Source of the DNA: Prolixibacteraceae bacterium
Lineage (GTDB): Bacteria > Bacteroidota > Bacteroidia > Bacteroidales > Prolixibacteraceae
Assembly (NCBI GenBank): GCA_027859005.1
Contig: JAQIBQ010000311.1
Coordinates: forward strand, 1 to 53,477
Reading direction: 5' to 3'
DNA length: 53,477 bases
Positions 11,901 through 33,355 of the stretch are shown here, one piece after another. How positions within the stretch are numbered: the first letter of the stretch is position 1; each line of letters starts with the position of its first letter. The position numbers and the translations under genes are program-made. The notes under the pieces were generated by a model that was not told the DNA's origin, searched no databases, and worked only from the letters and a program-made list of their open reading frames with translations.

Positions 11901-14900
11901 TTGAGGATCTTCTATAGCCGAACTGGAAGGACTTCCATTTTCGAAACTCCAATTCCAACCGTTTGGATTGGGACCAAAATCGTTGGAAGATTGATCTTCA
12001 AAATCAACAAGGCTGCCTCGGTATACGGGTTGCGGGTCGTATCCGAAGGCAGCTTGAAGATTGTCGATTTCCACTGTGCGTAATGTAGAATCAATACAAA
12101 ATTTATCATCGGTTACCCGATGAATAACATTTATCGTTTGTCCTTTCAAAGAATCATGGTAAGTGTGGGTTTGCATGGTGTTGGCCGCATTTGTTCCATC
12201 TCCAAAATCCCATTCGTACGAAACAATTGTTCCGGTTCCGGCATCGGCTATACTGGTGAAGTTTAATTCTTGCCAAGCACAAGCCAAGCTGTCGTCAATA
12301 ATAAAACGGGCCGAAAGTTGGTCGTTGCCATAAATATAAATGTAGTCGTCTTTTTGTAAGGTATCAGTACATCCTAAAGTATTGCTCACAATAAGTTGAG
12401 GACTATAAACTCCCTGCATTTGATATGCAAATTTTGGATGCTGAACTACTGATGTGTCGTTAAATACTGTTCCAAAATCCCATTTCCAAGAGCTTAAGGC
12501 ATTTTCTGGGTCGTTCGAAACACTAGAGTCGGTAAACTGGATTTCAACACCTTTACAAATACTGTCGTTGTCTACACCAAAATTTACAACAGGTGGCGTG
12601 CTGGTATAAATACTTCCTAAATAGGCGTTGTCGTAAGCATATTCTCCACAAACCTCATCGGTTAAAATTACCGAAGGAAAATTAAATCCTAGTTCAGTGT
12701 AGGTGGTGTCTGATTCAAAATAGCTAGTTGTTCCAGTGGGCAATGTATCTATTTTTGTAAAACCAGCACCATAATCCCAGGTAATGTAGTCTACATTTCT
12801 CATGTTACTCACCGAAAAGAGAACCGCGTTGGGAGCACAACCTATGGTTTTATCGTAGGAGAAATCTCCGTTGGCACCTTCAGCTGTAATATATTCTGTT
12901 CGCGTTAATGATTCTGAGCAATCGCCTTTGAAATTAATTGTTAAGGATACGGTATAATCACCTGGTGAAACGTAGTAATTTCGGGGTGCTCTTTCAGTTG
13001 AACTATTACCATCGCCAAAGTTCCATGAATAGCTTAAAACATCACTATCATTAGTTGCTGGAGTAAAATGAGCAAAGGCAGGAGCACAGCCTATATTGGT
13101 CGCTGTTGCCGTGAAATTAGCCGTAGAATTGATTACTCTTATTGTTTCAACATAGGTTTTTGTACAACCGTTTGCAATGGCAACTTCAAGTGTAACATTA
13201 TAGTTTCCGGGTGAGGTATAAGTATGGCTTACTGCATCGGTATTAGTGCTTGTTAAATCAATTGAACCGTTTCCATCAAAATCCCAACGATATTCACTAA
13301 TCGCTCCGGTTGAATTGTTTGAAAATGTGATTGCTGTATTGTTGCAAACTAAACTATCAGAAGCTTCAAACAAAGGCTCAAAAGGAATGAGTTCAATTAA
13401 GTTTGTTTTCTCTAGTGTAGTAGAGCACCCTTGACTATCGTTTACTGTTAACGAAACTGAAAAGGTAGTGTCGCTATTGAAACTATGTGTTGGATTTTCT
13501 TGTGTGCTTTCTGTCCCGTCGCCAAAGTTCCATAGATATCCGGTAATTGTAGCGGTATCGAACGAAGGCTGAGTACTTGTATTGTTGAAATCGACAGAAG
13601 TTCCTAAACAAACTAAAGCAGGCGAATGAGAAAAACTACTGATTGGTCCGCTTGCACTTACAAGGTTGCTTTCGGTAAACGAATAGTTACATCCACTGCT
13701 GCTTATTACTTCCAAATGTACATCGTATTCACCTGGAGTAGTATAAGTGTATATAACTGGGTCACCTGCATTGGTTGAATCATCGATAATTCCGTCGTTG
13801 TTATAATCCCACAGTAATTTATTAATCGGATAGTTGCTTGAAAGCCTGTTTGTGATGTCTTCAGTAAATGAAACCGTTAGGGGAGCACAACCTGTATTGT
13901 CCGTTGCACCAATTATTCCCGTTGCATTGTCGAAGTTGAAAATATTAATTTCTTCGGAATATTGATGAGAACAGGTTCCGTTATCAACTGTTAGTGTAAC
14001 GTTATAGTTGCCAGTAGTTGCGTATAAATGTGATGGTGAAGGGTCTGTACTTGAGTTGCCATCGCCAAAATCCCAAGAGAAAGTGGTAAGTGGATCGCTG
14101 TATGAACTTCTATTATCAAACGAAACATTGTAGGGAGGCGTACAAAAGGTGTTTTGATCAGGGTTGAAAAAAGCACGTGGTTCATTTGCCAAAATATTTG
14201 TAACCGAAAAAGGAGTTGATGTACATCCAAAGCGTGTTGCCATAACATCGATGGTAAAGGAACCTGTATCGGGGAATTCATAGTTAAATGCATGTGGGTT
14301 TCCACTTAGCGATTCTTGAACTTGCCCCGATGGTGTGTCAAATGTTAATAGCTCAGTGCCTGCAGAGTAATCTACATTCAATTGAACACCAAGACTGAAA
14401 CAATTCAAAGGGTCTTGAATGATGTTTACTGAATTTATGGTTGGCTGGCTAGTTACTTGAACTGCGCTATTGCGTGTTTCGGTATAGGTGCATCCGCTTG
14501 AAGTATTAACAACAAGCGTAACATTGAAACTTCCTGAAGTGGCATATGTATTTGAAACATTCTCGCCGCTGGCTGTATTGCCATCTCCAAAGGTCCAGTT
14601 GTATGTGTTTGGTGTTTCAAAATCGGAATTAAAAACGGCTTGGAAGTTCGTCGCACCTGCAGGCAAACAACCCGAAGTTGTTCCACTTATATTTATCGAC
14701 AACGAAGGTTTTTTTAATACAATATCATCAGAGTAACTTGCAGTACATCCGTCTTCGCTTACCACATCTAAACGAATTGAATGAGAGCCCGAACCACTAA
14801 AGGTATAATTGAAAGAGGGCGATGTGCTAATCAGTACATCAGTTCCGCCAGTTGTGTGATACCAATTTGTAGCTGAAATCGTTCTTCCAAGAACAGTTTT

Positions 14901-16427
14901 GGAGGTACTTGAGAAAAAAACTGGGTAATTGTTATCTGTACAGTTGTAAAACGAGCTGTAACTGAAATCGGCTATGGCTTCGTCAACATTGACTGTATGT
15001 GTGGTTTCAATTTGACAATCGTCGTCGAAATGTACTGTAAGCTTAACGGGGAAATTTCCTGCAGATGAAAAAAGATGATTGTAATTTGGATCTGTGCTTT
15101 CAACACTTCCGTCGTTATTTATGTCCCATTCGTAGGCCGTAACTCCTGAAGAAGTTAGAGCATTTAATGCAACGGTATCGCCAGAGCAATAATAGGCGTT
15201 TGTTGAAAAGTCGGCTGTATTGTTGTTGTTAAATCGAACGGTTTCGGTATGTGCTGCAGAAGCACAACCTTTCTCGGAAATTGAAGTTAAGCTAACGTCG
15301 TAATTACCTGCACCAAGGGTTGAGAAATCGAAGTCGACCGATTTAGTATGTTCGTCAAGTGCCGTTCCGTTCACTGTCCAGTTGTAGTCCGATATTGTGC
15401 TATTAATTACGGAACTGTTGTCGGTAAAGGTAGTTAGCGATGGTCCGCAATCATCGGCTTTGTTGATGGTAAATGCAGCTTCGGGTTTATCATCAACTTC
15501 AAATAAGTTAAAATTTGTTTTTGATCCTTGGCATCCATTTTCATCAGTTACCTCGAGTACCACATTGTAAATTGCTCCCTCAAAATCTGTGGCAGTTAAA
15601 GGAGCAGGCGGATTGGTATTGTATACTTCTTCATGATCGTCGAAGAAAAACCAGTAGTGGTAGGCTTCTGTTCCACTTGATATCGCCCCAATTACCTGAC
15701 CATTTACTGTTCTGCTTGGTTCCGTAACTGCGCCACCTGTAGATTGCAGCGTTACATCTGCAAGTTCACATCCTGGATTGTTTATATCGCCTATGTTGGG
15801 TTTAGGTCTTGGATAGATGTTAATTACATCGGAGAAAGTATTTTCGGTAGCTAATCCTTGATCGATGGTAAGACTTACGGTATAGCTCCCTGGTTTGTCG
15901 TAAACGGCCGAAGGATTATATACATTGGAAAAAGGTTCATTCCCATTTCCAAGCGTCCATTCGTATGTCGAAGCATTTTTTGAGAGGTTGGTAAATTGAA
16001 CCCTACGGTACTTACAGCCCATTTGGTAGTCCATGGTAAAAGCGGCATAGTTGTCACCTGTATGAATAAATATTTTAAAGCTGGTGGTGTTTGTTGCATT
16101 TGATTCATCGGTTGCTGTTACCGAAATGGTGTAAGTGCCTGCATTTATTGGCGTTCCGCTGATTAGTCTTGACGATTCAGTATAAGTTAGTTCCGAAGGT
16201 AAGCCAGTTACGGTATAGCTGATTGCATCGTTGTTTTCGTCTTTAAAAGCATTTGAAGGAATGGTATACGAGAAATAATCTTCCACTTCGGCATGTTGAT
16301 TGGTTAGGCCAATATTCAACACCGGAGGAAGATTTTGTGAATACGTAAAATTCGGAATAAGAAGCAGATTGAGAACCACAATCAGCCACCCGATTCTACA
16401 CCAGTTTACACTCTCGCACAGTTTCAT
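2940..16427 (-). CDS. Giant (4495 aa) PKD / cadherin-like repeat surface protein with gliding-motility-associated (T9SS type B) C-terminal domain
   Basis: Signal peptide; N-terminal Ig-like domain (NPPVLNIGL..TNTTSFKIF); many PKD motifs (WDFGDGN..H.Y...G.Y.V.L.V); many (V/E)ND(A/x)P-type cadherin-like/VCBS repeats; C-terminus VPEIITPNNDTKNDVLIIDGIEYFPNAMLQIFNRYGHVVFQSKGYENNWGG. Confidence 0.93.
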   Translation of the reverse strand: MKLCESVNWCRIGWLIVVLNLLLIPNFTYSQNLPPVLNIGLTNQHAEVEDYFSYTIPSNAFKDENNDAISYTVTGLPSELTYTESSRLISGTPINAGTYTISVTATDESNATNTTSFKIFIHTGDNYAAFTMDYQMGCKYRRVQFTNLSKNASTYEWTLGNGNEPFSNVYNPSAVYDKPGSYTVSLTIDQGLATENTFSDVINIYPRPKPNIGDINNPGCELADVTLQSTGGAVTEPSRTVNGQVIGAISSGTEAYHYWFFFDDHEEVYNTNPPAPLTATDFEGAIYNVVLEVTDENGCQGSKTNFNLFEVDDKPEAAFTINKADDCGPSLTTFTDNSSVINSTISDYNWTVNGTALDEHTKSVDFDFSTLGAGNYDVSLTSISEKGCASAAHTETVRFNNNNTADFSTNAYYCSGDTVALNALTSSGVTAYEWDINNDGSVESTDPNYNHLFSSAGNFPVKLTVHFDDDCQIETTHTVNVDEAIADFSYSSFYNCTDNNYPVFFSSTSKTVLGRTISATNWYHTTGGTDVLISTSPSFNYTFSGSGSHSIRLDVVSEDGCTASYSDDIVLKKPSLSINISGTTSGCLPAGATNFQAVFNSDFETPNTYNWTFGDGNTASGENVSNTYATSGSFNVTLVVNTSSGCTYTETRNSAVQVTSQPTINSVNIIQDPLNCFSLGVQLNVDYSAGTELLTFDTPSGQVQESLSGNPHAFNYEFPDTGSFTIDVMATRFGCTSTPFSVTNILANEPRAFFNPDQNTFCTPPYNVSFDNRSSYSDPLTTFSWDFGDGNSSTDPSPSHLYATTGNYNVTLTVDNGTCSHQYSEEINIFNFDNATGIIGATDNTGCAPLTVSFTEDITNRLSSNYPINKLLWDYNNDGIIDDSTNAGDPVIYTYTTPGEYDVHLEVISSSGCNYSFTESNLVSASGPISSFSHSPALVCLGTSVDFNNTSTQPSFDTATITGYLWNFGDGTESTQENPTHSFNSDTTFSVSLTVNDSQGCSTTLEKTNLIELIPFEPLFEASDSLVCNNTAITFSNNSTGAISEYRWDFDGNGSIDLTSTNTDAVSHTYTSPGNYNVTLEVAIANGCTKTYVETIRVINSTANFTATATNIGCAPAFAHFTPATNDSDVLSYSWNFGDGNSSTERAPRNYYVSPGDYTVSLTINFKGDCSESLTRTEYITAEGANGDFSYDKTIGCAPNAVLFSVSNMRNVDYITWDYGAGFTKIDTLPTGTTSYFESDTTYTELGFNFPSVILTDEVCGEYAYDNAYLGSIYTSTPPVVNFGVDNDSICKGVEIQFTDSSVSNDPENALSSWKWDFGTVFNDTSVVQHPKFAYQMQGVYSPQLIVSNTLGCTDTLQKDDYIYIYGNDQLSARFIIDDSLACAWQELNFTSIADAGTGTIVSYEWDFGDGTNAANTMQTHTYHDSLKGQTINVIHRVTDDKFCIDSTLRTVEIDNLQAAFGYDPQPVYRGSLVDFEDQSSNDFGPNPNGWNWSFENGSPSSSAIEDPQDIDFSSIGIDNKIQLIVTNNNTCSDTTFLLVDVLNNPPVVDTFTITSIENSTYFFRIFEFEDRFSDEDPGHTMNAVRIETSPANGSFRLNGSAYTIGTSIPYSQITQLEFVPDANWNGSTEFIWNAFDGFDWSLSPELIYVVVLEEPEPPKLLNITFDLPEDSVIQITEQDFIDHINYSVGSLFEFDSLWILSDLTPAVGTLTFNGNAFSAPQLILENQINNSDTVFKYYPTQGYNGTLSFNWNAHDGYNFAETAGQVIINYYNTAPTLTNIVRLDLKEDDFQTITKSEFEDHYFDIDQYDSPQVFFLSNIPLANEGKFWINGQEVGPNDFSISYDELINFRFDPAWGFEGTTQVNWGISDGVDTSFALIQFEFVNTPPYLHDVNVDGFEDEVFTFDVSNFNPSTQPSTTPFEDDDHWDQLEMIEIVSLPQHGELLYDGFSVSPDLTINRGNINLLTYLSANNWNGSDQFDYNAFDGTDWANNDTLVYLNIQPVNDAPTPSTVYYSIQEDEVLTGKNVGDNDKDIDDNHSVLRFSVAEIDSASAGENGTITLNNLGYLTYTPNKDFNGFVYFIYTVCDDDNACAKDSVFITIEPINDAPVAAIDSFYIYEDEDPKTFDCLFNDVDIDGDNISLNTVESSYTRNITTEYGELEWNPYGNITFTLNSGLDTLKAGDEIPLSFNYKIRDVHNLQDSSVFVITILGRNDAPIAVADSYATIEGEASISSDGTDEFSILYNDSDPENDQISVATVNNNTLHNITSPFGTFNWQTDGSWIFTQNLDATDSLYQDELVQIEYPYTNSDGVTESDTSTISFSITGVNDAPIAENNYLNISEDTESISITISQVEALLLNDSDVDGDDFWVNEIEGSSTKSTTSDVGTLNWDSDGSYTYIPDPDIVDQLAGGTSIDDTFNYSIVDDFGATDTAQLIITITGVNDEPFANDDYISIYEDTQVTVVDSANGLLPNDGDVDQDPIVVAVNGVGSRTLNGEYGTLTWDSTGAYTYITDPNLVDTLYYNENVIDVFTYTVNDPSGETDFANLYITIIGENDAPVAENHYESMYEEDIVLVLNDRNAGIISEDSDIDDNENFEIKQINNSTIIPAIGTYGSLVWHEDGTFIYTLNQLTDSLAEYEVVVDSFLYLIEDAFDSTATAWFYIEITGENDQPEASRDTLELTENDIEISPAWSLLLNDADTDGDFIELYSFSYDTTSPTETTFASFDWDSTGYFTYNRYTYNRIYNGLDTLAFDDLIVDSISYSIIDEHGVESESKLHLQIQGVNDAPTTGRDANFINESSTQVSSNANNFILENDYDVDRRDSIVLLNINEITSDSVAGVFGYLKWTYDGNYTYYNNYEATDSLYRSERVHDLFPYTITDLQGATTTDTLDITISGVNDKPVALNDTIFISEDDDSISIHPLNEGLLWNDYDVDGDRIFILITGTDTIKTLNGKYGLLTIYENGQAQYKLNAQMDSLYSGEKVFETFSYTIVDEHNYTSNALILITITGDNDKPEAVDDFVSILEDTDSIFAPIEDVNALLFHDYDVDNDMLMVSTVSDTSLIPAFGNYGELYWDSTGAYTYITDKSRADQLAEGDTAYDTFTYLVRDPFDGLDSAQLLIELIGVNDPPVAMSNFYSTFEFNAISITTDSTNDILDNDFDVDGDTSLITLINNLPNDTIIGEWGTLIWMPDGSFEYFPDSALALALRPDEVSNDIFEYTLEDEFGATDTSIINFSILGINNAPIADNDTLIIYEDEQSKALENSLIFRDYDVDNDTLFVSKIEDDTTGVFTGLYGEVFWNSKGDVVFTPNRQVIDQLGARENAIEEYEYTIVDEGGLRDTAILRILIIGENDPIIARNDYDTIYEDRYSIVNVVENDEDLDNNENGNFDYNSLNIQIQPINGEASVNSANGEIYYFPNENYFGTDSLLYQICDKGDPVYCDTAWLVIDVHEVNDPPVATHLNLQTDVNIPVDFNAFDQVVDIDDGIDPASLDFPEGNLSISDSIFTYMPDSFFIGRDEFIYSLADYSDERAYVIVTVSIPDDGDGAQNDFATTSENTAIQINILANDTLNNFVANPLSVDIRIYAKHGIASYDPFNHVIDYEPANNFNGIDSLTYLVESKTGTWDFATVYITVEPINSPIIANDDATTTFMNKTKFIQILLNDIDIDNGIDYWSVDTLQGTQNGSISYDTINGVITYIPDLDYLGEDYFSYRVCDLDEDNTSCDTANVFLLVKSKTDGINAGNDEISTKEDSTITITYEFITANDEVFTGVLDPTSLFVITGPQHGTFESDGAYGIIYTPFDNYFGPDWITYQVCDTVGNCDFAEINIWINEVNTAPIANDDNFVVTENTKKRLSILSNDFDYDGNLDWSTLDTITGPSKGTIVIDTLTGTILYTPSINADIDEFKYRICDNEGLCAEATVMVLVDLGSTIPYNQVTEEDTPDTIDLAPLLAKFNFLETVDSYIGNGGPIVGNWEFINNNTQLVYTPLHDSIGADYYNIQLYFPNSDTADLIVIVDILPVNDAPVAVLDSVTWTTDTDKLIIDFNTILSNDFDVDGDSIFLSQGVIEFGDSLHVVFNSDSTITVTADTILWCDSWFTYEITDPSGESDTGYVFIMPELEGIVAEDDSIEVDENSQITIHELLNDSFKDMQLCTIDTVVILSDPLNGIAASNEQNTIEYRPTDHYYGADSLEYEIVDIWGQTDSAWVLINVIQRNQPPVADPDAVTNDFGESIQIFILENDYDPDPDGYIDTIFTNLVYDNLPSNGTVWFNPDSGYFEYTPIEFTCEADQFSYTIFDNEGDSASTTVSIGLPEEAPLFANNDTVKTWPGVPVEFNVLTNDEGYFLPYINNYTEPEWGSIEQIGDSSFIFNPYADFGSNDSMTYELVSPCGNQTNGKVIFMIEELRVPEIITPNNDTKNDVLIIDGIEYFPNAMLQIFNRYGHVVFQSKGYENNWGGYSNQGSLGGNKPLPTGSYYYTLLYNEGRNKQAGLIYIYR
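3230..11790 (-). repeat. Cadherin-like / VCBS-type tandem repeats inside the giant protein (approximate limits)
   Basis: Repeated 'VNDAPxAxxDxxxIxEDxxxxxxxxLLxNDxDVDxDxxx...YGxLxWDSxGxYTYxxD' units at a spacing of roughly 340 nt, judged by eye over about 6.4-10.4 kb. Confidence 0.75.
11800..16050 (-). repeat. PKD-domain tandem region inside the giant protein (approximate limits)
   Basis: Recurrent 'YxWDFGDG(N/T)xS..xPxHxYxxxGxYxVxLxV' motifs from about FTMDYQMGCKYRRVQF to about IQLIVTNNNTCSDTTFLLVDVL. Confidence 0.75.
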
Positions 16428-17167: not shown

Positions 17168-18031
17168 ATGAGATCAACTAGAAATATTTTGCATAATCTA
17201 ATATTGGTTGCATACTATGGTATAGTTTTGGGAACTTTAGTTCTACTAATTGTTCTTGGATATGATTATTATTCAACAAGTATTGAAGAAAGGTATTTTC
17301 ATGAATTAAACAATCAATTTAAAGCGAGTGGTATTTATGGTCATGGCTTTGGAATTATTGGTTCGTTGTTAATTGTTATAGGCGTTTTTAGTTATATGAT
17401 AAGAAAACGTGTTCGAAGGTATACTCGCATTGGCTATTTGCGAGACTGGTTACATTTCCATATTTTCCTTTGTGTTGAAGGTTCAATTTTAATTGTATTT
17501 CATACTACATTTAAGTTTGGTGGTTTAGTCGCAATAAGTTTCTGGAGTATGGTGGCTGTTGTATTGAGTGGTGTTGTTGGCCGTTATATTTATTTGCAAA
17601 TACCTAGAACCATTGAGGGTAGAGAAATGAGTAGAATGGAGATGGACGATGAGAATTTGGAATTGAATAAGCAAATAAGAACTAGCGTAGTTTTAGATGA
17701 AAACCTATATCAAATACTGGATGAAAATACAGCTTTGAAAGTTGGTTTCTTAGGTTTTCTTTTTAAAAGTAAAGTTGAAAAAGATGCAATTAGAAATTTG
17801 AAAAATGCTCTTGATAGTCAGCAGATTTCTAAATCTGAAAAAAATAAAATACTGAATTTATTTAAGAAACAGCTTGCGCTAAAAAAACGGATAGTAAAAT
17901 TGGTTGGCATGCAAAATTTGCTGAAGTATTGGCATGTAGCGCATTTGCCTTTCGCATTAATTATGTTGATTATTATGGTTATACATGTTGCAGTAGCCTT
18001 GGTTTTTGGGTATGTCTGGATATTTAGTTAG
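17168..18031 (+). CDS. Multi-pass membrane protein, putative b-type cytochrome / ferric-reductase-like
   Basis: Several hydrophobic helices; histidines at helix ends (YGHGFGI, WLHFHIF, IVFHTTF, KYWHVAHLPFALIMLIIMVIHV) suitable for heme b; first gene of the cytochrome operon. Confidence 0.6.
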   Translation: MRSTRNILHNLILVAYYGIVLGTLVLLIVLGYDYYSTSIEERYFHELNNQFKASGIYGHGFGIIGSLLIVIGVFSYMIRKRVRRYTRIGYLRDWLHFHIFLCVEGSILIVFHTTFKFGGLVAISFWSMVAVVLSGVVGRYIYLQIPRTIEGREMSRMEMDDENLELNKQIRTSVVLDENLYQILDENTALKVGFLGFLFKSKVEKDAIRNLKNALDSQQISKSEKNKILNLFKKQLALKKRIVKLVGMQNLLKYWHVAHLPFALIMLIIMVIHVAVALVFGYVWIFS

Positions 18032-18037
18032 ATAATT

Positions 18038-19375
18038 ATGGACGTTTTAATTGAAAAAATATTGACTTATGGTTTGCTTACTCTTTTCTTGGTATTTGTA
18101 GTATGGATCTATTTAAGAAAGCAAAAAAGAGAATCATTAATTGTTGAGCAAAAAATTGCAAAAGCAAAAGAAGAAGGTATTCACGAACCAGTTACGCTAC
18201 ATCCAGTAATTGATCCAAATAGTTGTATTAAGAGTGGTGCTTGTATTACCGCTTGCCCTGAAAAAGATATTATTGGTATAAAGGATGGCAAAGCAACCAT
18301 AATTAATGGTTCAAGATGTATTGGACATGGCGCTTGTTTTCATGCTTGTCCGGTACAAGCCATTACACTTTGCATTGGAACCGAAAAAAGAGGTGTGGAC
18401 TTACCTCATGTAGATCAAACATTAGAGTCGAATGTGCCAGGGGTTTATATTTGTGGTGAAATGGGCGGAATGGGCTTGATAAAAAATGCGGTGGAACAAG
18501 GAAAGCAGGCGGTCGATAATATGGCCAAAACAATTAATAAAAAAACTGAAGCAGATTACGACCTAATTGTAGTTGGTGCTGGGCCAGCTGGTATTTCGGC
18601 CTCATTACAAGCAAAGAAACTAAAGCTGAAAACGATAACTTTTGAACAAGACTCATTAGGCGGAACAGTCTACACTTTCCCACGATCTAAAATTGTGATG
18701 ACTTCTGCAATGGATCTGCCATTTAAAGGAAAAGTGAAATTATACGAGACCAGCAAACAGGAACTGATGGACATTTGGACTGAGGTAATAGAACAAAACG
18801 GAATTGAAATAAAAGAACATACCAAAGTTGAAGCAATAAATCCAATTAATAATCATTTTGAAGTGCTAACTCAGGCGGGTGAAAAATTTACTTCCAGAAA
18901 AGTATTACTCTCCATTGGACGGCGAGGAACTCCTCGAAAATTGAATGTCCCTGGTGAAGAAAGCATGAAAGTAGCCTATCGATTATTGGAACCTGAAGAC
19001 ATTCGCGATAAGCATATATTGATTGTTGGAGGTGGGGATTCAGCGGTTGAATCGGCCATGTTATTGGCCGATCGGAATAAAGTAACTTTGTCGTATCGGA
19101 AAGAAAATTTTAGTCGAATTAAACCGATGAATAGTGAGCGGATTAAAGAGGCTATAAATTCGGGTAAAATTGAAATATTGTTCAACTCAAATGTGTTGTC
19201 TATTGCTGAAAACGAAATAACAATAAAATTGGAAGATGAAGAGAAGCAACTTAAAAACGATTTGGTTTATATATTTGCTGGAGGTGAATTGCCAACTCAG
19301 TTTTTAGAAAAGATAGGTATTGCAATAACAACAAAATTTGGCGATGCAATTTTAAAGCACGAAAAGAAAAGATAG
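18038..19375 (+). CDS. Membrane-anchored ferredoxin-like / FAD-NAD(P) oxidoreductase
   Basis: N-terminal TM helix (TYGLLTLFLVFVVWIYL); two ferredoxin-like motifs CIKSGACITACP and CIGHGACFHACP; FAD motif VVGAGPAGISASLQA; NAD(P) motif ILIVGGGDSAVESAMLLA; thioredoxin-reductase-like segment VPGVYICGEMGG placed before the FAD domain. Confidence 0.8.
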   Translation: MDVLIEKILTYGLLTLFLVFVVWIYLRKQKRESLIVEQKIAKAKEEGIHEPVTLHPVIDPNSCIKSGACITACPEKDIIGIKDGKATIINGSRCIGHGACFHACPVQAITLCIGTEKRGVDLPHVDQTLESNVPGVYICGEMGGMGLIKNAVEQGKQAVDNMAKTINKKTEADYDLIVVGAGPAGISASLQAKKLKLKTITFEQDSLGGTVYTFPRSKIVMTSAMDLPFKGKVKLYETSKQELMDIWTEVIEQNGIEIKEHTKVEAINPINNHFEVLTQAGEKFTSRKVLLSIGRRGTPRKLNVPGEESMKVAYRLLEPEDIRDKHILIVGGGDSAVESAMLLADRNKVTLSYRKENFSRIKPMNSERIKEAINSGKIEILFNSNVLSIAENEITIKLEDEEKQLKNDLVYIFAGGELPTQFLEKIGIAITTKFGDAILKHEKKR

Positions 19376-19397: not shown

Positions 19398-20996
19398 ATG
19401 AGCAATAAAATAGGACACAACAAAATTCAGCTAATTCTACTGTTGATTTTTATTTTTCAGGCTAGAAGCTATGGGCAGATATCTCCTGGAGACTTAACAT
19501 CGGCTCATGCCAATCTTGAAGGTATGAGTAAGTGTGTCAATTGTCATGTGTTAAGAGAGAATGTTACTGATGAGAAATGTCTCGATTGTCATACTGAAAT
19601 TAAGTCACTTGTTAATGCGAACAGCGGTTATCATGTTTCGGTTGAGGTAGAAAACAAGCAATGCTTCGAATGCCATAATGAGCACCACGGGCGTAATTTT
19701 CAGATAATTCGTTTTGAAAAAGACAGTTTCGATCATCAATTAACCGGTTATCAGTTGGATGGAAAGCATGCAGAAGTAGAATGTATCGATTGCCACAAAA
19801 ATGAATTTATTAAAGAAAAAATAAGTCAAAAAACACAAGGGGAATCCTATCTCGGTTTGCAACAAGAATGCCTTTCGTGCCATACCGATTACCATCAAGA
19901 AAGCTTGGGTGCTAATTGCTTCGAATGTCATTCCTTTCAGGCATTTAAACCCGCAGAAAAATTTAATCACGATAATGCAAATTTTCGTTTAGTTGGTGCT
20001 CATAAAAATGCCGATTGTGTTAAGTGCCATAAAATTGATGAAGTTAATGGTCAGAAGTTTCAACACTTTAAAAATGTTGTTGCCAATAATTGTACCGACT
20101 GTCATACCGATGTGCACAATGGAAAACAAGGAAACGATTGTTTAAAATGTCACAATCAGGTTTCTTTCAATAAAATTAGTGACTTGCAGTCTTTTGATCA
20201 TTCAACAACAAATTTCCCATTAATAGGATTGCATCAAAAAGTAGATTGTGACAAATGCCACGAGGCTAGTTATACTCAAGATATCGCTTATCAAAAGTGT
20301 ACTGATTGCCATGATGATTTTCACCGCGGCCAGTTAACAAGCAATAGGAAAACAACTGAATGTAATTCTTGTCATAATGAATATGGCTTTTCTCCTTCAC
20401 AATATACTATCGAACGACATAATCAATCTTCTTTTGTATTAGATGAATCGCATTTGGCAACTCCTTGTATTTTTTGTCATTTGAAAGAAGACCAATGGGA
20501 ATTCAAACAAATTGGGAAAAAATGTGTGGATTGCCATGAGGATATACACAATGGTATAATTGAAAAGAAATTCTATCCTAAAAAGAACTGTGAAAGTTGT
20601 CATTCTGTTTCGAGTTGGAGTGAAGTGGAATTTGATCATAAGCTCACCGAATTTGAATTGGAAGGTGAACACCAAAATCAAAATTGCAGAGCATGTCATT
20701 TTAACCTGGATAATAGTCAGCAATTCAATGTTCTGGATCGAAAATGCGAGCAATGTCACAACGATGTTCATTTTGGACAATTTGAAACAAAAGAAAACAA
20801 CAACTGTGAATTGTGTCATACATTTACGAATTGGTTACCTGAGCGTTTTGAACACGATAGCACTCGCTTTAAGCTTGATGGTGGTCATGAAAATGTTGAT
20901 TGTTTCAAATGTCACGAAAATGTTAGTGTAGATGAAAATTCATATATTAATTATTCATTTGAAGATATAAAATGCGTGCTCTGTCATACACCATAA
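19398..20996 (+). CDS. Multiheme c-type cytochrome (20 CxxCH motifs)
   Basis: Signal peptide; 20 CxxCH motifs counted by eye (CVNCH ... CVLCH); repeated FxHxxTxFxLxGxHxxxxCxxCH modules. Confidence 0.92.
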   Translation: MSNKIGHNKIQLILLLIFIFQARSYGQISPGDLTSAHANLEGMSKCVNCHVLRENVTDEKCLDCHTEIKSLVNANSGYHVSVEVENKQCFECHNEHHGRNFQIIRFEKDSFDHQLTGYQLDGKHAEVECIDCHKNEFIKEKISQKTQGESYLGLQQECLSCHTDYHQESLGANCFECHSFQAFKPAEKFNHDNANFRLVGAHKNADCVKCHKIDEVNGQKFQHFKNVVANNCTDCHTDVHNGKQGNDCLKCHNQVSFNKISDLQSFDHSTTNFPLIGLHQKVDCDKCHEASYTQDIAYQKCTDCHDDFHRGQLTSNRKTTECNSCHNEYGFSPSQYTIERHNQSSFVLDESHLATPCIFCHLKEDQWEFKQIGKKCVDCHEDIHNGIIEKKFYPKKNCESCHSVSSWSEVEFDHKLTEFELEGEHQNQNCRACHFNLDNSQQFNVLDRKCEQCHNDVHFGQFETKENNNCELCHTFTNWLPERFEHDSTRFKLDGGHENVDCFKCHENVSVDENSYINYSFEDIKCVLCHTP

Positions 20997-23900
20997 TTCT
21001 ACTACTCATTTCTATATTGGGTATTGCACAATCTCCACATGGTGAAGCATTGGAGCTAGATTGTGCCCTATGTCATACTTCCAATAACTGGTTGGTTAAT
21101 GGAAGTGATATTGAATTCACGCACGACAGTACAAATTATAAGCTCGTTGGTCAGCATCAGTTTGTAAATTGCAAAGAATGTCACCAAAGCCTGGTTTTCC
21201 CCGATGTGGATAATGAATGTAGCCAATGTCATTCCGATATTCATTACAATACTGTTGGAAAAGAATGTGCACGTTGTCATTCTCCTATAACTTGGAAGAT
21301 AAGTGAAGTGGCAGAGATGCACCAAAAAAGCAGGTTTGAATTATTGGGAGCTCACAAAAATGCAACATGTACGGCTTGTCATAAATCGGCCAGTGAATTG
21401 TTATTTGAACCCATTGCAGTAGAGTGTGTTGAGTGTCATATTGTAGATTTCCAACAAAGTAGTGAGCCAAATCATATCGAAAGAGGTTTTTCCCAATCTT
21501 GTATAGAGTGTCATAATCCTGAATCAAAAAACTGGAATGCCGAGGATATCGATCATGAGTTCTTCCCTTTAACAGGTGGTCATAATACAGGATGTATTGA
21601 TTGTCATGCTTCGGGAAGCTTTAAAAAGATACCGGCTAATTGTGTAGAATGTCATCGTGAAAATTACAATAGTGCACAAATGCCAGAACATATTTCGGCT
21701 GGTATTCCTACCGAATGTGAACAGTGTCATACCATTATTGAATGGACCCCATCTGCATTTAACCATGCATCAACCGGATTTGAATTAAGCGGAGGGCACA
21801 ATCAAATTGAACAGTGCAATGCCTGTCATATCAATGCAATTGATGGAGCACAATCGGAATGTATTTCCTGTCATCAGGTACAATACGATAATGCACCTGA
21901 TCATAAAACACTTAATTTCTCTACTTCTTGTTTAGAATGCCATACTGCTGAAAGTTGGACGGATGCTACATTTGATCATTCCAAAACTAATTTTCCATTG
22001 AAAGGGCAACATGTTGGTATCGATTGCGCTAGTTGTCACGAAAACGGGTTTGCTGGAACATCAACAGAATGTAGTGCTTGTCATATTGAGAATTATAATG
22101 TTGCTGAACAACCCAATCATAAAGCAGCAGGAATTGAAAAAGGATGTGCAGAATGTCATACAGAGTCTGGCTGGCATCCTTCGTCATTTAATCATGCTTC
22201 AACTGGTTTTGGATTAACAGGTGGTCACAGTACTATCGAGCAATGTTCAAGTTGTCATAAAGGAACAACAAAAAATACAAGTTCAGATTGTATAAGCTGC
22301 CATCAGGTTCAATACAATAGTGCCAATAATCATGAGGAATTAAATTTCCCAACAGCATGTTTAAATTGTCATACAACTGAATCGTGGTCTGCTACAACTT
22401 TTGATCATTCAACAACAAGCTTTCCATTGAATGGCAAGCACATTGAAGTCGATTGTGCTAGCTGTCATGTAACAACTTTAGCAGGTACTTCTAATGAATG
22501 TAGCTCGTGTCATATTGAAAATTACAATGCAGCAATGGAGCCCAATCATGGTGCTGCAGGTATCGCAACTGAATGTGTCGATTGCCACAATGCAGAAGGC
22601 TGGACTCCTTCAGCATTTGATCATGCAAGCACTGGTTTTGCATTACAGGGGGCGCATTTGAGCATAGAACAATGTTCGAATTGTCACGATGGATCAACTG
22701 CAACTGCTAATCCGGCGTGTATTAGTTGCCACCAAAGTCAATACAATGAAGCTCCTGAACATGTTGACCTTGATTTTCCTAAAGAATGTTTGAATTGTCA
22801 CAACAGCGATAGTTGGGCTAATTCTGTTTTTGATCATTCCATTACGAATTTCCCATTAACCGGATTGCACGTAAATGTTGAATGTTCAAGTTGTCATCAA
22901 GATGGTTATAAAGGTACTTCAACACTCTGTAATGCCTGTCATATTGAAAATTATAATAGTGCAGAAATACCCAACCATAAACAGGCCGGAATAGAAAAAA
23001 CTTGTGAAGAATGCCATTCAACAAATGGATGGAAACCGTCATCGTTTGATCATGACCAAACAGGATTTGAACTTACTGGAGCTCACTTGAATTTAGAGCA
23101 ATGTTCTAATTGTCATGAAGGAAGTGTAGTAAATGCTAGTTCAGAATGTATAAGCTGTCATCAACAACAATACAATTCGGCACCTGATCATTTGGAACAA
23201 AATTATCCTGCCACTTGTACCATGTGCCATAGTACCGAAAATTGGCTTAAAACCAGCTTTGACCATTCACAAACCGGATTTCCATTAACCGGATTGCATG
23301 TAGATGTTGACTGTGCGAGTTGTCATAAAAACGGATTCTCTGGAACATCAACAGAATGTAGCAGTTGTCATACCGAACAACATAATACTGCCCAAATGCC
23401 CAATCATATAAATGCTGGTATTCCACCGAACTGTGAAGAATGTCATACTTCCTCTGGTTGGAACCCATCGGAATTCGAACACATTTCAACTGGTTTTGAA
23501 TTAACCGGAGGGCACTTGTTGGTTGAGCAGTGTTCTGATTGCCACAAAGGAACTTTAGTTGGAGCAAATCAGGAATGTATAAGTTGTCATCAAATTCAAT
23601 ACGATTATGCGCCTGGTCATAAACAAAATGCATATCCGCTGGAATGTACCATGTGTCATACCGACAATAATTGGATCGAAACAAATTTTAACCATAACCT
23701 AACTGCATTCCCACTTACAGGCCAGCATGTTTCAGTTGATTGCAGTAGTTGTCATACTTCAGGTTTTGCAGGTACATCAACAGATTGCAATAGTTGTCAT
23801 AATGGGAATTACAACAATGCACAACTTCCCAATCATACAGCTGCAGGAATTCCAACTACTTGCGAGGAATGTCATTCTACTTCAGGTTGGCAGCCTTCCT

Positions 23901-24985
23901 CTTTTGATCATGTAACAACTGGTTTCACTTTAACAGGTGGGCATTTAAACGTAGAACAATGTTCTGAATGTCACTTAGGAAGTGTTTCCAATGCAAGTGC
24001 CGACTGCTTTAGTTGTCACCAAACACAATACAATACTGCTCCCAGCCATGTTCAACAAGGATATCCGCAAGAATGTATCCTATGTCATTCAACCAACAAT
24101 TGGATTGAAACCAGTTTTAATCATAACCTAACTGCATTCCCACTTACAGGGCAGCATATTTCTGTTGATTGCAGTAGTTGTCATCGCTCAGGATTTGCGG
24201 GAACATCAACAGATTGTAATTCTTGTCACAGCGGAAATTACACAACTGCGCAACTTCCCAATCATAGCGCTGCTGGAATACCAACTACTTGTGAGGAATG
24301 TCATTCTACCTCAGGTTGGCAGCCTTCCTCTTTCGATCATGTAACAACCGGTTTTACCTTAACGGGAGGGCATTTAAATGTTGATCAGTGTTCTGAATGT
24401 CATTTAGGAAGTGTTTCCAATGCAAATGCCGATTGCATAAGTTGTCATCAATCACAATACAATACTGCACCTGATCATTCGCAATTGGGCTATCCAACAA
24501 CTTGTACGATGTGCCATTCCACGAATAATTGGCTCGAAACCAATTTCAATCATTCACAAACAAGCTTTCCGTTAACAGGTGCTCATACTTCTGCTTCCTG
24601 TTCCGATTGTCATAGTAGTGGATTTTCTGGAACATCAATGCAATGTTATAGTTGTCATAGCTCAGATTATAATTCAACCAACGATCCAAATCATGCTGCA
24701 GCTCATTTTCCCACTGAATGTCAATCGTGCCACACAACAAGTGCATGGGAGCCTGCAAGCTTTAATCACGATTCACAGTACTTTCCAATATATAGTGGAG
24801 AACATAGAGGGGAATGGAATTCGTGTACCGACTGTCATACAAATTCGTCCAATTATTCAATATTTAGTTGCATCGATTGTCATGAACATAACAGAAGCGA
24901 AATGGACGATGAACATAGAGATGTAAACGGTTACTCATACCTTAGTAGTGCATGTTACAGTTGTCATCCAAGAGGAGATGATTAA
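20972..24985 (+). CDS. Giant multiheme c-type cytochrome (1337 aa, 55 CxxCH motifs)
   Basis: Signal peptide (MRALSYTIILLLISILGIAQ); 55 CxxCH motifs counted by eye; additional His at FDH, GGH and PDH/PNH positions consistent with distal ligands; internal 143-aa tandem units. Confidence 0.95.
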   Translation: MRALSYTIILLLISILGIAQSPHGEALELDCALCHTSNNWLVNGSDIEFTHDSTNYKLVGQHQFVNCKECHQSLVFPDVDNECSQCHSDIHYNTVGKECARCHSPITWKISEVAEMHQKSRFELLGAHKNATCTACHKSASELLFEPIAVECVECHIVDFQQSSEPNHIERGFSQSCIECHNPESKNWNAEDIDHEFFPLTGGHNTGCIDCHASGSFKKIPANCVECHRENYNSAQMPEHISAGIPTECEQCHTIIEWTPSAFNHASTGFELSGGHNQIEQCNACHINAIDGAQSECISCHQVQYDNAPDHKTLNFSTSCLECHTAESWTDATFDHSKTNFPLKGQHVGIDCASCHENGFAGTSTECSACHIENYNVAEQPNHKAAGIEKGCAECHTESGWHPSSFNHASTGFGLTGGHSTIEQCSSCHKGTTKNTSSDCISCHQVQYNSANNHEELNFPTACLNCHTTESWSATTFDHSTTSFPLNGKHIEVDCASCHVTTLAGTSNECSSCHIENYNAAMEPNHGAAGIATECVDCHNAEGWTPSAFDHASTGFALQGAHLSIEQCSNCHDGSTATANPACISCHQSQYNEAPEHVDLDFPKECLNCHNSDSWANSVFDHSITNFPLTGLHVNVECSSCHQDGYKGTSTLCNACHIENYNSAEIPNHKQAGIEKTCEECHSTNGWKPSSFDHDQTGFELTGAHLNLEQCSNCHEGSVVNASSECISCHQQQYNSAPDHLEQNYPATCTMCHSTENWLKTSFDHSQTGFPLTGLHVDVDCASCHKNGFSGTSTECSSCHTEQHNTAQMPNHINAGIPPNCEECHTSSGWNPSEFEHISTGFELTGGHLLVEQCSDCHKGTLVGANQECISCHQIQYDYAPGHKQNAYPLECTMCHTDNNWIETNFNHNLTAFPLTGQHVSVDCSSCHTSGFAGTSTDCNSCHNGNYNNAQLPNHTAAGIPTTCEECHSTSGWQPSSFDHVTTGFTLTGGHLNVEQCSECHLGSVSNASADCFSCHQTQYNTAPSHVQQGYPQECILCHSTNNWIETSFNHNLTAFPLTGQHISVDCSSCHRSGFAGTSTDCNSCHSGNYTTAQLPNHSAAGIPTTCEECHSTSGWQPSSFDHVTTGFTLTGGHLNVDQCSECHLGSVSNANADCISCHQSQYNTAPDHSQLGYPTTCTMCHSTNNWLETNFNHSQTSFPLTGAHTSASCSDCHSSGFSGTSMQCYSCHSSDYNSTNDPNHAAAHFPTECQSCHTTSAWEPASFNHDSQYFPIYSGEHRGEWNSCTDCHTNSSNYSIFSCIDCHEHNRSEMDDEHRDVNGYSYLSSACYSCHPRGDD
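21716..24718 (+). repeat. Seven in-frame tandem units of exactly 429 bp (143 aa, 6 CxxCH each)
   Basis: First Cys codon of the equivalent motif lies at 21716, 22145, 22574, 23003, 23432, 23861, 24290 and (terminal partial unit) 24719: eight positions separated by exactly 429 nt. Confidence 0.95.
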
Positions 24986-24997
24986 AAAAAGAAACTA

Positions 24998-26023
24998 GTG
25001 AGAAAAATAAAATTAATACTATTGTTTTTGCTGATTGTGTATCAGGGAGTAGGTCAATCACCTCATGGAGAAGATCTTGAGTTTGATTGTGGAGTTTGCC
25101 ATACATCAGAGAGTTGGAAGCTGGATCCGAATCAGCTTACTTTTGATCATAGTCAAACTGGATTTGCATTGAACGGACAACATAAAAACCTTGAATGTTT
25201 AATGTGTCACGAAGATCTGGTTTTGTCAAATGTCAAGAATGATTGCGTCGCTTGTCATACCGATATTCATGAACAAACTTTAGGGAATGATTGTAGGCAA
25301 TGTCACAGTGAAAATAACTGGTTAATTTTTAATCCGGTTAAGTTGCATCAAAATAGTCGCTTCCCTTTGTTAGGGGTTCATGCTGTTGCTGATTGTGAGC
25401 AGTGTCATACATCAGTATCTTTACTGAAATTTGAACCCTTAGGTATTGATTGTTACAATTGTCATCAACAAAATTATACTTCAACCACTCAGCCAAATCA
25501 TGTTGAAGAAGGGTACTCTACCAATTGTTTAGATTGTCATAGTGCTAAAGCATATGAATGGTCAGCAACTGGTTTTAATCACGATTTTTTTCCGCTTACT
25601 CAAGGTCATTTTTCATTGGAGTGTGCACAATGTCATACCGAAAATGTTAATTCGAGTATTTCGGCTGAATGTGTTGAATGCCATTTGGAAGATTTCAATA
25701 ATGCTGAAAATCCAACGCATGATCGGGATAATTTTTCATTGTCGTGTACTGAATGTCATTCAATTAGTGTCGATTGGCAACCTGCCGATTTTCGTATTCA
25801 CGATGCCGTTTCATTTCCTGTTTATTCAGGAAAGCATAGAGGGGAATGGAAATCATGTACTGAATGCCATACAAATTCATCTAATTATGCTGTATTTACC
25901 TGTATTGATTGTCATGAACACAATCGATCAAAAATGAATAATGAGCATGACGATGAACGTAATTATGTATACGAAAGCAATGCATGTTATGAGTGTCATC
26001 CAAGAGGAACAGAAGACGATTAA
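24998..26023 (+). CDS. Multiheme c-type cytochrome (341 aa, 13 CxxCH motifs), short paralogue of the 55-heme protein
   Basis: GTG start; signal peptide; 13 CxxCH counted by eye; N-terminus QSPHGEDLEFDCGVCHTSESW and C-terminus HRGEWKSCTECHTNSSNYAVFTCIDCHEHNRSKMNNEH closely match the upstream giant. Confidence 0.93.
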   Translation: MRKIKLILLFLLIVYQGVGQSPHGEDLEFDCGVCHTSESWKLDPNQLTFDHSQTGFALNGQHKNLECLMCHEDLVLSNVKNDCVACHTDIHEQTLGNDCRQCHSENNWLIFNPVKLHQNSRFPLLGVHAVADCEQCHTSVSLLKFEPLGIDCYNCHQQNYTSTTQPNHVEEGYSTNCLDCHSAKAYEWSATGFNHDFFPLTQGHFSLECAQCHTENVNSSISAECVECHLEDFNNAENPTHDRDNFSLSCTECHSISVDWQPADFRIHDAVSFPVYSGKHRGEWKSCTECHTNSSNYAVFTCIDCHEHNRSKMNNEHDDERNYVYESNACYECHPRGTEDD

Positions 26024-26035
26024 ATAGAAAACACC

Positions 26036-27643
26036 ATGAAAGTTAAGCTAACACTGATTTTATTATTTAGTATTTTCTCTATAGCTTTTGCTCAGGCAGA
26101 AAAAGAGGAAATAAAAGGTGTGGTTACCTATATGACTTCGCAGAATGTGTATGTAAAATTTGCTTCTGCAAAAAAAATAAGCGAAGGTGATCAATTGTTT
26201 GTTAAAGTTGAGGGTGTATTAAAACCGGTATTACTAGTGAAAAACCGTTCATCGGTTTCATGTGTTGGTAATATCGTTGGTGAGAATTTACTTAAAATTG
26301 GTGACCAAATAATTGCTTTCATCGAAAAGGATCCTGAAAAAGTTGAGCCAGATGTTGTGGGGCTTACCGTTGAAAATGCAGTGCAAGATGAGAAAATTCA
26401 TGAGCAAGATGAAAGTGATAAAGACGGTAAGAAGTTGGAACAAAAAGTACAAGGTCGATTTTTGATTTCCTCTTACTCCAATATTTCAAACCTGGAAACC
26501 GATAACAATTATAAGTTCAGGTATACTTTTTCACTTAATGCGGCCAATATTGCCAACTCCCGATTTTCATTTGAAAACTACATTTCGTTTACGCATAAAA
26601 CAAACAATTGGGATGAGATAAGCACTAATATTTTTAACGGATTGAAAATTTATAGTTTAAATGCCAGCTATCGTTTGGGAGAAAGAACTTCCATAGCTAT
26701 GGGTAGAAAAATTAATCCTAAAATTTCAAGCATTGGTGCTGTTGATGGGGTTCAGTTTGAGTCTTCTTTTAAAAGCTTTTACTTTGGGGCTGTTGCAGGA
26801 TATCGTCCTGATTATAGTGATTACAGTTTTAATTTTGACTTGTTGGAATACGGTGCTTTTTTGGGGCATACCTTGAAGTCAAAAACAGGACGAATGCAAA
26901 CATCGGTAGCCTTATTTGAGCAAACAAATGCTGGGAATACTGATCGTAGATTTGCCTATTTTCAACACGATAATACACTTCTAAAGAATTTTAGTTTCTT
27001 TATTTCATCAGAATTAGACTTGTATCGCTTATTGGATGGAGTACCTACAAGCGATTTAATATTAACTAGTTTGTATGCGTCTGTTCGCTATAGGCCAATT
27101 CGTGAGTTTTCAATTATGTGTTCATACGATAACCGCCGAAATATTATCTATTATGAAACCTTCAAAAATTATATCGACCAATTAATCCAAGATGCTACCA
27201 GGCAAGGGTTTCAAATGCGATTAAATTTTAAACCAATAAAGTACATGTATGCTGGTTTGTCGGGCAGTTATCGAATGCGTGATAATGATACTAGAGCAAC
27301 TAGAAATGTTAATGGATTTTTAAGCTACAGTAATTTGCCTTGGATAAAAAGTTCGATAACCTTGACAACAAATTTCTTGCAGAATAGTTATTTATCGGGA
27401 AGTGTTTATGGTGCCCGATTAACACGCGACTTTATGAAAGGGAAAATGAATGCTGGTTTAAATTATCGCTATGTTAATTACCTTTTTGAGCACAACGAAA
27501 ATGGATTGTCTCAAAATATTGGAGAAATTGATGTATCGTATCGTTTCAATCGTAAGTTTTCACTTTCATTGAATTATGAAGGTACATTTGAAAATAGTGC
27601 AAATTATCACCGAATTTATTTTAATGCAGTAAAACGATTTTAA
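26036..27643 (+). CDS. Putative outer-membrane beta-barrel protein with N-terminal periplasmic domain
   Basis: Signal peptide; small beta domain (KGVVTYMTSQNVYVKFASAKKISEGDQLFVK..IGDQIIAFI); acidic linker; then alternating aromatic/hydrophobic strands ending in a terminal Phe (IYFNAVKRF). Confidence 0.75.
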   Translation: MKVKLTLILLFSIFSIAFAQAEKEEIKGVVTYMTSQNVYVKFASAKKISEGDQLFVKVEGVLKPVLLVKNRSSVSCVGNIVGENLLKIGDQIIAFIEKDPEKVEPDVVGLTVENAVQDEKIHEQDESDKDGKKLEQKVQGRFLISSYSNISNLETDNNYKFRYTFSLNAANIANSRFSFENYISFTHKTNNWDEISTNIFNGLKIYSLNASYRLGERTSIAMGRKINPKISSIGAVDGVQFESSFKSFYFGAVAGYRPDYSDYSFNFDLLEYGAFLGHTLKSKTGRMQTSVALFEQTNAGNTDRRFAYFQHDNTLLKNFSFFISSELDLYRLLDGVPTSDLILTSLYASVRYRPIREFSIMCSYDNRRNIIYYETFKNYIDQLIQDATRQGFQMRLNFKPIKYMYAGLSGSYRMRDNDTRATRNVNGFLSYSNLPWIKSSITLTTNFLQNSYLSGSVYGARLTRDFMKGKMNAGLNYRYVNYLFEHNENGLSQNIGEIDVSYRFNRKFSLSLNYEGTFENSANYHRIYFNAVKRF

Positions 27644-27664: not shown

Positions 27665-28390
27665 ATGAGGCTATCAATTTTTATCTCAGTTTTTTTCCTA
27701 TTAATTACATCATGTTCACAAAAACCAAAAGTTGAAAAGGAAGTCAATTCAAATGAATTTGCAATGCATAAAGTGTTAATTGAGGATGTGATTCAAACAT
27801 CAAATTACACTTATTTGAAAGTAAAAGAGAATAGTGATGCTTTTTGGATTGCAGTTATGAAGGATAGTTTTCAGGAGGGGATGGAATTGTTTTATTTTCA
27901 AAATAAGGTTACTGTTATGCAAAACTTTCATAGTGAGGAATTGAATCGCAACTTTGATAAAATATTGTTTATAAGTCAGGTATCCGTTGGAGAAGGAACT
28001 GCAGCAGTTGTGAAGCAACCCGGCACTATTGTCAGTAAAGCACATAGTGGTAGAAAACAAAGTGATGTTGAAAAAAGTATAAGAATTGAAAAAGCAGAAG
28101 GTGGAATTACGATAGCTGAATTGTATTCTAATCCTTTAGAATTTAAAAATAAAACAGTCAGAATTAAAGGTGAGGTTGTAAAAGTGAACAACCAAATAAT
28201 GGGTCGCAATTGGATTCATATTCAGGATGGAACTAAAAGTGGAAAAGAATTTGATTTAACAATTACAAGTAATGAAGTAGTTGAATTAAATGAATTGATT
28301 ACTTTCGAAGGAGTAGTTGGCTTGGATAAAGATTTTACCTCGGGTTATTTTAATCCAGTTATTTTGGAAGAAGCACTTGGTGTAAAATAA
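27665..28390 (+). CDS. Putative lipoprotein with C-terminal OB-fold-like domain
   Basis: Lipobox LLITSC; C-terminal VRIKGEVVKVNNQIMGRNWIHIQDGT...FDLTITSNEVVELNELITFEGVV resembles OB-fold domains; last gene of the operon. Confidence 0.65.
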   Translation: MRLSIFISVFFLLITSCSQKPKVEKEVNSNEFAMHKVLIEDVIQTSNYTYLKVKENSDAFWIAVMKDSFQEGMELFYFQNKVTVMQNFHSEELNRNFDKILFISQVSVGEGTAAVVKQPGTIVSKAHSGRKQSDVEKSIRIEKAEGGITIAELYSNPLEFKNKTVRIKGEVVKVNNQIMGRNWIHIQDGTKSGKEFDLTITSNEVVELNELITFEGVVGLDKDFTSGYFNPVILEEALGVK

Positions 28391-33315: not shown

Positions 33316-33355
33316 TTTTTCAAAGATCTTTTTTAAGCAGGTTTATAAACTGAGA

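What the first reader, a model, noticed from the sequence alone, without database searches (positions are those of the whole stretch)
21716..24718. Seven tandem 6-heme units with an exact 429-bp (143-aa) period and no indels
The equivalent Cys codon recurs at 21716, 22145, 22574, 23003, 23432, 23861, 24290 and 24719, always 429 nt apart, although the units have diverged in sequence. Such strict length conservation suggests that geometry (heme spacing along a filament-like chain) is under selection. Each unit is two related 3-heme halves (xxCxxCHxxxxWxxxxFDHxxTxFxLTGxHxxxxCxxCHxxxxxxxxxxCxSCHxxxYNxAxxPxH).
Basis: seen in the sequence. Interest (0 to 1): 0.9.

Follow-up and report, generated by a model that had tools for sequence, protein, structure and literature searches.

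The report
Modular 55-heme electron-wire cytochrome
A sediment-type Bacteroidota bacterium encodes a protein predicted to carry 55 heme groups, mostly in seven copies of a 143-residue, six-heme block, inside a seven-gene set that looks like a machine for moving electrons across the cell envelope; its relatives change the number of heme blocks almost only in steps of three hemes, so the protein may be a wire whose length evolves by adding links.

Summary
Gene 20972-24985(+), 1337 aa, has 55 CXXCH motifs. Eight Cys anchors lie exactly 429 nt apart, bounding seven gap-free 143-aa units (46-74% identical). Each unit is a 71-aa plus a 72-aa triheme half. The next gene (24998-26023, 13 hemes) has the same start and end without the array: 55 = 9+42+4 and 13 = 9+4. 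Both sit in a seven-gene operon: a five-helix di-heme b-type membrane protein, a Fe-S/flavoprotein, a 20-heme cytochrome, these two cytochromes, an outer-membrane-barrel candidate and a GW lipoprotein. The operon order is conserved across Prolixibacteraceae, other Bacteroidota and Ignavibacteriota. The 20-heme partner is nearly constant; the array protein has 13+3n hemes (13 to 70) in 84 of 99 complete relatives. The 143-aa unit is exact in 73 of 81 A/B units from 33 proteins, but other lineages use triheme modules of 69-77 aa. Exact length is therefore a property of one module pair, not of the whole family. Lack of indels in the window alone is only mildly unusual (P about 0.02-0.12). Best reading: a PCC3-like extracellular-electron-transfer conduit with a length-variable heme wire. 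Heme geometry and secretion are untested; AlphaFold models were poor. New variant of a known kind.

The parts
17168..18031 (+). five-helix inner-membrane protein (287 aa), predicted di-heme b, with WX3HX13H at residues 94 and 255 and SGXXG at 134
   Evidence: motifs and hydropathy; 18-row family alignment keeps W94, H98, H112, S134, G135, G138, W255, H259, H273 invariant; no Pfam match
18038..19375 (+). membrane-anchored 2x ferredoxin-motif + pyridine-nucleotide-disulphide-reductase-type flavoprotein (445 aa)
   Evidence: Fer4_10 and Pyr_redox_3 matches; most conserved gene of the set, median 65.5% identity
19398..20996 (+). 20-heme c-type cytochrome (532 aa), constant partner
   Evidence: 20 CXXCH; 20 hemes in nearly all intact relatives; best PDB relative GSU1996 3ov0, E 3e-8
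20972..24985 (+). 55-heme c-type cytochrome (1337 aa) containing the reported array; overlaps the previous gene by 25 bases
   Evidence: Cytochrome_C7 4e-57
20972..21715 (+). signal peptide and N-terminal 9-heme region, homologous to the start of the 13-heme protein
   Evidence: same heme spacing 36-16-16-34-19-25-31/32-16-25; 41% identity
21716..22144 (+). unit 1 (71 + 72 aa, 6 hemes)
22145..22573 (+). unit 2
22574..23002 (+). unit 3
23003..23431 (+). unit 4
23432..23860 (+). unit 5
23861..24289 (+). unit 6
24290..24718 (+). unit 7
24719..24985 (+). C-terminal 4-heme cap (35-15-28), shared with the 13-heme protein
24998..26023 (+). 13-heme cytochrome (341 aa, GTG start): the zero-unit form of the same protein
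   Evidence: fused to the array protein in Draconibacterium-type genomes
26036..27643 (+). 535-aa outer-membrane beta-barrel candidate with an N-terminal SH3-like (weak ExtJ) domain
   Evidence: weak ExtJ match E 0.008; present after the cytochromes in relatives; barrel nature inferred from sequence, not predicted by a tool here
27665..28390 (+). 241-aa lipoprotein with a GW domain, present in part of the relatives
   Evidence: GW 1e-5; 40 loci

Best explanation
The array is a tandem polymer of c7-like triheme modules forming a single-chain heme wire. It is the length-variable cytochrome of a porin-cytochrome-type electron conduit. Proposed flow: a cytoplasm-facing flavo-iron-sulfur protein and/or quinol gives electrons to the di-heme b membrane protein; these pass to the constant 20-heme periplasmic cytochrome, then to the 55-heme and 13-heme cytochromes and through or along the barrel to an outside acceptor (or inward in reverse). 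The array grew by tandem duplication of a 429-bp A/B pair in this lineage. Duplication in whole modules keeps reading frame, heme register and all bis-His ligands, so the wire can lengthen without being redesigned. Shown: units, register, ligand counts, operon conservation, 3-heme quantisation, lineage-specific expansion. Inferred: heme contact along the chain, cell location, barrel insertion, direction and partner of electron flow.
For: 55 CXXCH, 24.3 residues per heme. 639 of 640 triheme modules in relatives carry at least three extra His and 591 exactly three, as all-bis-His ligation needs; the whole protein has 58 for 55 hemes. Heme number is 1 mod 3 in 84 of 99 complete relatives; most exceptions are broken frames, single-motif losses or altered ends. 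Gene order membrane protein / Fe-S flavoprotein / 20-heme / variable cytochrome / barrel is conserved with few exceptions, including a plasmid of Emticicia oligotrophica that also carries ccsA. The membrane protein has exactly the two WX3HX13H and SGXXG motifs described for PCC3/PCC4 (PMC5566968). The window's seven units form one group on the unit tree (support 83). The 20-heme partner's best solved relative is the Geobacter triheme-domain wire GSU1996, whose hemes lie 3-5 A edge to edge (PMC10138318). The genome has cytochrome c assembly genes.
Against: No structure: AlphaFold gave pLDDT 62 (three units) and 44 (13-heme protein), Foldseek found nothing. No lipobox or type IX sorting domain was seen on the 55-heme protein, so extracellular placement is not shown. 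The barrel has no family match. No tested function for any relative was found; in Prolixibacter, which has a 16-heme version, iron corrosion is ascribed to nitrite, not to direct electron uptake (PMC8368055). The genome also has oxygen reductases, so the acceptor is unknown.
Confidence: 0.6

Rival explanations
1. The protein is a periplasmic electron store (capacitor): many hemes accept electrons when the acceptor is short, and length matters for charge capacity, not for reach.
For: Sec signal but no visible outer-membrane anchor; multiheme proteins of this kind have been proposed as capacitors (GSU1996, PMC10138318; Burkholderiales 49-heme, PMC7399161). Copy number varies freely (13-70 hemes) while partners stay constant.
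Against: Nearly always encoded between a 20-heme partner and a barrel candidate in one operon, an arrangement typical of trans-envelope conduits; a store would not need a barrel.
Confidence: 0.22
2. The exact 143-aa period reflects only tandem duplication and the general scarcity of indels in densely heme-packed proteins; there is no selection on long-range geometry. (This rival concerns the period, not the function, so its confidence is not exclusive with the others.)
For: Window units form one group, with units 5-7 closest; indel rates at similar identity predict only 2-4 indels, P(0) about 0.02-0.12; relatives use modules of 69-77 aa.
Against: Most unit pairs are synonymously saturated (dS above 1), and the 143 period is kept exactly in 73 of 81 units across two phyla.
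Confidence: 0.5
3. The protein polymerises between molecules into an extracellular filament as OmcS/OmcE/OmcZ do.
For: Very long, acidic, heme-rich chain; cytochrome filaments are known in Geobacter (PMC6584659, PMC9473688, titles and abstracts).
Against: Known filaments are built from many copies of small subunits (OmcS: six hemes); here the repeats are already joined in one chain and capped at both ends by conserved non-repeat regions; no sequence match to a filament cytochrome in PDB.
Confidence: 0.12

Closest known systems
PCC3 porin-cytochrome clusters (He et al. 2017, PMC5566968)
   Same: A ~300-aa membrane protein with two WX3HX13H motifs and SGXXG; a periplasmic cytochrome of about 21 hemes; a second, very heme-rich cytochrome (median 34, up to 85) with repeats; a barrel gene; large variation in heme number
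   Different: PCC3 was reported from Alpha-, Beta- and Gammaproteobacteria; here Bacteroidota/Ignavibacteriota, with an added Fe-S/flavoprotein and GW lipoprotein, a smaller barrel candidate (535 aa), a separate or fused 13-heme form, and 3-heme modules. Sequence homology to PCC3 proteins was not tested
Burkholderiales S13 24/49-heme pair with porin (PMC7399161, 2020)
   Same: Smaller conserved cytochrome plus larger one that gains or loses CXXCH domains between close relatives; 22-23 residues per heme
   Different: Different phylum; OmbB-like porin; no exact module period described
Geobacter GSU1996 dodecaheme wire / NCBIfam TIGR04257 nanowire_3heme
   Same: Tandem triheme c7-type domains in one chain; best PDB relative of the 20-heme partner; TIGR04257 just over cut-off for the 55-heme protein (41.8 vs 40 bits)
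   Different: GSU1996 has 4 domains, each with one His-Met heme; here each module has three spare His (all bis-His expected) and there are 14 array modules plus flanks
PCC4 / FRD-like membrane protein clusters (PMC5566968)
   Same: Same membrane-protein motifs plus, in one subgroup, an accompanying Fe-S gene
   Different: PCC4 has three periplasmic cytochromes and no very large one
OmcS/OmcE/OmcZ filaments
   Same: Heme chain idea
   Different: Those are polymers of separate subunits

Membership tests
PCC3 porin-cytochrome complex | Inner-membrane protein ~300 aa with five helices, two WX3HX13H and SGXXG | tested here: met
   287 aa, motifs at 94, 134, 255; invariant in the family. These motifs are shared with PCC4 and other clusters, so they place it in a superfamily
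PCC3 porin-cytochrome complex | Periplasmic cytochrome of about 21 hemes next to a much larger, variable cytochrome with repeats | tested here: met
   20 hemes constant; 13-70 variable. Cell location itself not tested
PCC3 porin-cytochrome complex | Large beta-barrel porin in the cluster | tested here: inconclusive
   535-aa gene in the right place, no Pfam match, barrel not predicted by a dedicated tool
PCC3 porin-cytochrome complex | Sequence homology of cytochromes and porin with the proteobacterial PCC3 proteins | not tested
   Proteobacterial PCC3 sequences could not be fetched; plasmid hits in Methylophaga and Bradyrhizobium are distant membrane-protein/7-heme loci
Triheme c7 wire (GSU1996, TIGR04257) | Tandem triheme CXXCH domains | tested here: met
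   14 modules of 71/72 aa plus flanks
Triheme c7 wire (GSU1996, TIGR04257) | Score over curated cut-off of TIGR04257 | tested here: inconclusive
   41.8 vs 40 bits for the whole 55-heme protein but no single stretch passes; best 26-32 bits, below cut-off, in four relatives' genomes
Triheme c7 wire (GSU1996, TIGR04257) | One His-Met heme per domain (GSU1996) | tested here: not met
   Exactly three spare His per module in 591 of 640; Met absent from 506 of 640
Triheme c7 wire (GSU1996, TIGR04257) | Continuous heme chain, 3-5 A edge to edge | not testable with these tools
   Apo model pLDDT 62, coordinates not readable
OmcS-type filament | Intermolecular polymer of cytochrome subunits | not testable with these tools
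   needs cryo-EM

The most novel reading that the evidence does not exclude
A modular, length-tunable molecular wire: in Bacteroidota and Ignavibacteriota one conduit keeps all its parts constant except the number of triheme links in one cytochrome (13+3n, from 13 to at least 70), expanded independently in many lineages. Wire length would be an evolving trait matched to envelope thickness or to the distance of the acceptor.
Probability: 0.35. Interest if true: 0.72.

Novelty: new variant of a known kind. Interest (0 to 1): 0.55.

Why it matters
If right, the family is a natural series of heme wires of graded length (13, 16, 19 ... 70 hemes) with the same ends and partners, including members in cultured genera (Draconibacterium, Maribellus, Mariniphaga, Prolixibacter, Emticicia). 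That makes a direct test of how length sets conduction, reach or charge storage possible, and it points to electron exchange outside the cell in a group of sediment and groundwater Bacteroidota where I found it little described.

Tried and rejected
AlphaFold on three units (35-row alignment) and on the 13-heme protein (19 rows): pLDDT 62 and 44, no usable heme geometry; Foldseek of the better model found nothing. phmmer of the 55-heme protein against PDB: no hit; profile: only weak cytochrome c554 and MtrF. Assembly artefact considered and rejected: the units are at most 75% identical in DNA, so they cannot be a collapse or stutter, and single-contig relatives show the same architecture. Chance rejected: seven exact repeats with homologous sequence. 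Link to iron corrosion in Prolixibacter considered and not used: published work ascribes it to nitrite. Promoter and terminator scans gave no more than shuffled sequence.

Full report
Observation. ORF 20972-24985(+) encodes 1337 aa with 55 CXXCH motifs. The units are 46-74% identical in protein, align without gaps, and most pairs are saturated at synonymous sites. Each unit is a 71-aa and a 72-aa triheme half; the halves differ from each other by +1 and -2 residues.

Anatomy. The next gene, 24998-26023(+), has 13 hemes and the same beginning and end: nine hemes with spacing 36-16-16-34-19-25-31/32-16-25 and a four-heme end with spacing 35/37-15-28. The long protein is thus this short protein plus seven six-heme units: 9+42+4 = 55. 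The genes stand in a tight operon, with gaps of -25 to 22 bases. It starts with a membrane protein that has two WX3HX13H motifs and SGXXG on predicted helices 3, 5 and 4. Then come a ferredoxin-flavoprotein, a 20-heme cytochrome, the 55-heme and 13-heme cytochromes, a 535-aa barrel candidate and a GW lipoprotein. The three cytochromes begin with Sec-type signal sequences (by eye).

Relatives. In the same family (Prolixibacteraceae, by matching contigs to named records) 61 of 140 genomes have the protein. A scan with the 20-heme partner brought 80 best loci, nearly all from Bacteroidota and Ignavibacteriota by their titles (one MAG is titled Alphaproteobacteria), and 39 of 395 genomes sampled over the phylum have it. 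Gene order is conserved with few exceptions, including a plasmid of Emticicia oligotrophica. The partner has 20 hemes in nearly all intact cases (23 = 20+3 in Emticicia). The array protein has 13+3n hemes in 84 of 99 complete cases, from 13 to 70; most of the remaining 15 are frame breaks, single lost motifs or altered ends. In Draconibacterium-type genomes the 13-heme protein and the array are one fused ORF.

How strict is the length? A/B-type six-heme units are 143 aa in 73 of 81 cases from 33 proteins in two phyla, otherwise 140, 142 or 144. But over 640 triheme modules of all kinds the length runs from 69 to 77 aa, and some lineages use 73+73. At similar identity, neighbouring proteins show about 0.5-0.8 gap openings per 100 aligned residues, so seven units would be expected to show about 2-4; zero has a probability of about 0.02-0.12 (a rough estimate that treats seven units as 3-3.5 independent comparisons). 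So strict length is real for this module pair, but the window alone does not prove selection on long-range geometry. The most constrained features are the heme register and the ligand count: 639 of 640 modules have at least three His outside CXXCH, and 591 have exactly three, as expected if every heme is bis-His.

How the array grew. On a tree of 81 units the window's seven form one group (SH-aLRT 83), as do the six of L105 and the four of L048. Arrays were therefore amplified separately in several lineages, by the same 429-bp step, and the copies then diverged. The tree has few columns and modest support.

Mechanism. The most likely reading is a single-chain heme wire in a porin-cytochrome-type conduit: flavo-iron-sulfur protein and/or quinol, di-heme b membrane protein, 20-heme periplasmic cytochrome, 13/55-heme cytochromes, barrel, outside acceptor, with the direction open. 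Heme contacts, cell location and acceptor are inferred. AlphaFold models without heme were too poor to test geometry. The genome also encodes cytochrome c assembly proteins and oxygen reductases.

Known systems. The closest is PCC3 of He et al. 2017 (PMC5566968): same membrane-protein motifs, a ~21-heme partner and a repeat-rich, very large cytochrome, reported from Proteobacteria. A 2020 bioanode study (PMC7399161) saw gain and loss of CXXCH domains in a 49-heme relative from Burkholderiales. GSU1996 of Geobacter is the solved example of a tandem triheme wire (PMC10138318) and is the best PDB relative of the 20-heme partner. Homology to PCC3 proteins could not be tested here, so I call this PCC3-like and do not file it as PCC3. 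New here are the wide spread in Bacteroidota and Ignavibacteriota, the 13+3n rule, the zero-unit sister gene and its fusions. I found no paper describing these, but searches covered only the open library.

Verdict. Real, exact and informative, a new variant of a known kind.

Noticed in passing
18038-19375 (+): Both ferredoxin motifs lack the second Cys: CxxS/TxxCxxxCP and CxxHxxCxxxCP, with the His in all 121 readable relatives. This suggests unusual 3Fe-4S or His/Ser-ligated clusters.
   Followed up: partly
24998-26023 (+) and L041-L059: The 13-heme and array cytochromes are separate genes in the window and its nearest relative but one fused ORF in Draconibacterium-type genomes.
   Followed up: partly
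20972-24985 (+): The 55-heme protein is very acidic: Lys+Arg 2.7%, net charge about -111.
   Followed up: no
L183 (Emticicia oligotrophica plasmid pEMTOL02): The whole operon plus a ccsA cytochrome-assembly gene is plasmid-borne in a cultured strain; the partner has 23 and the array protein 40 hemes.
   Followed up: partly
L132:11572-16788: A 70-heme member in a Bacteroidales MAG, the largest seen here.
   Followed up: no
2940-16427 (-) and 1977-2930 (-): A 4495-aa Ig/cadherin-like giant protein with a type IX secretion C-terminal signal next to a PorP/SprF gene.
   Followed up: no
31126-34657 (+): Peptidase-C39 ABC exporter and HlyD pair, likely a peptide exporter.
   Followed up: no
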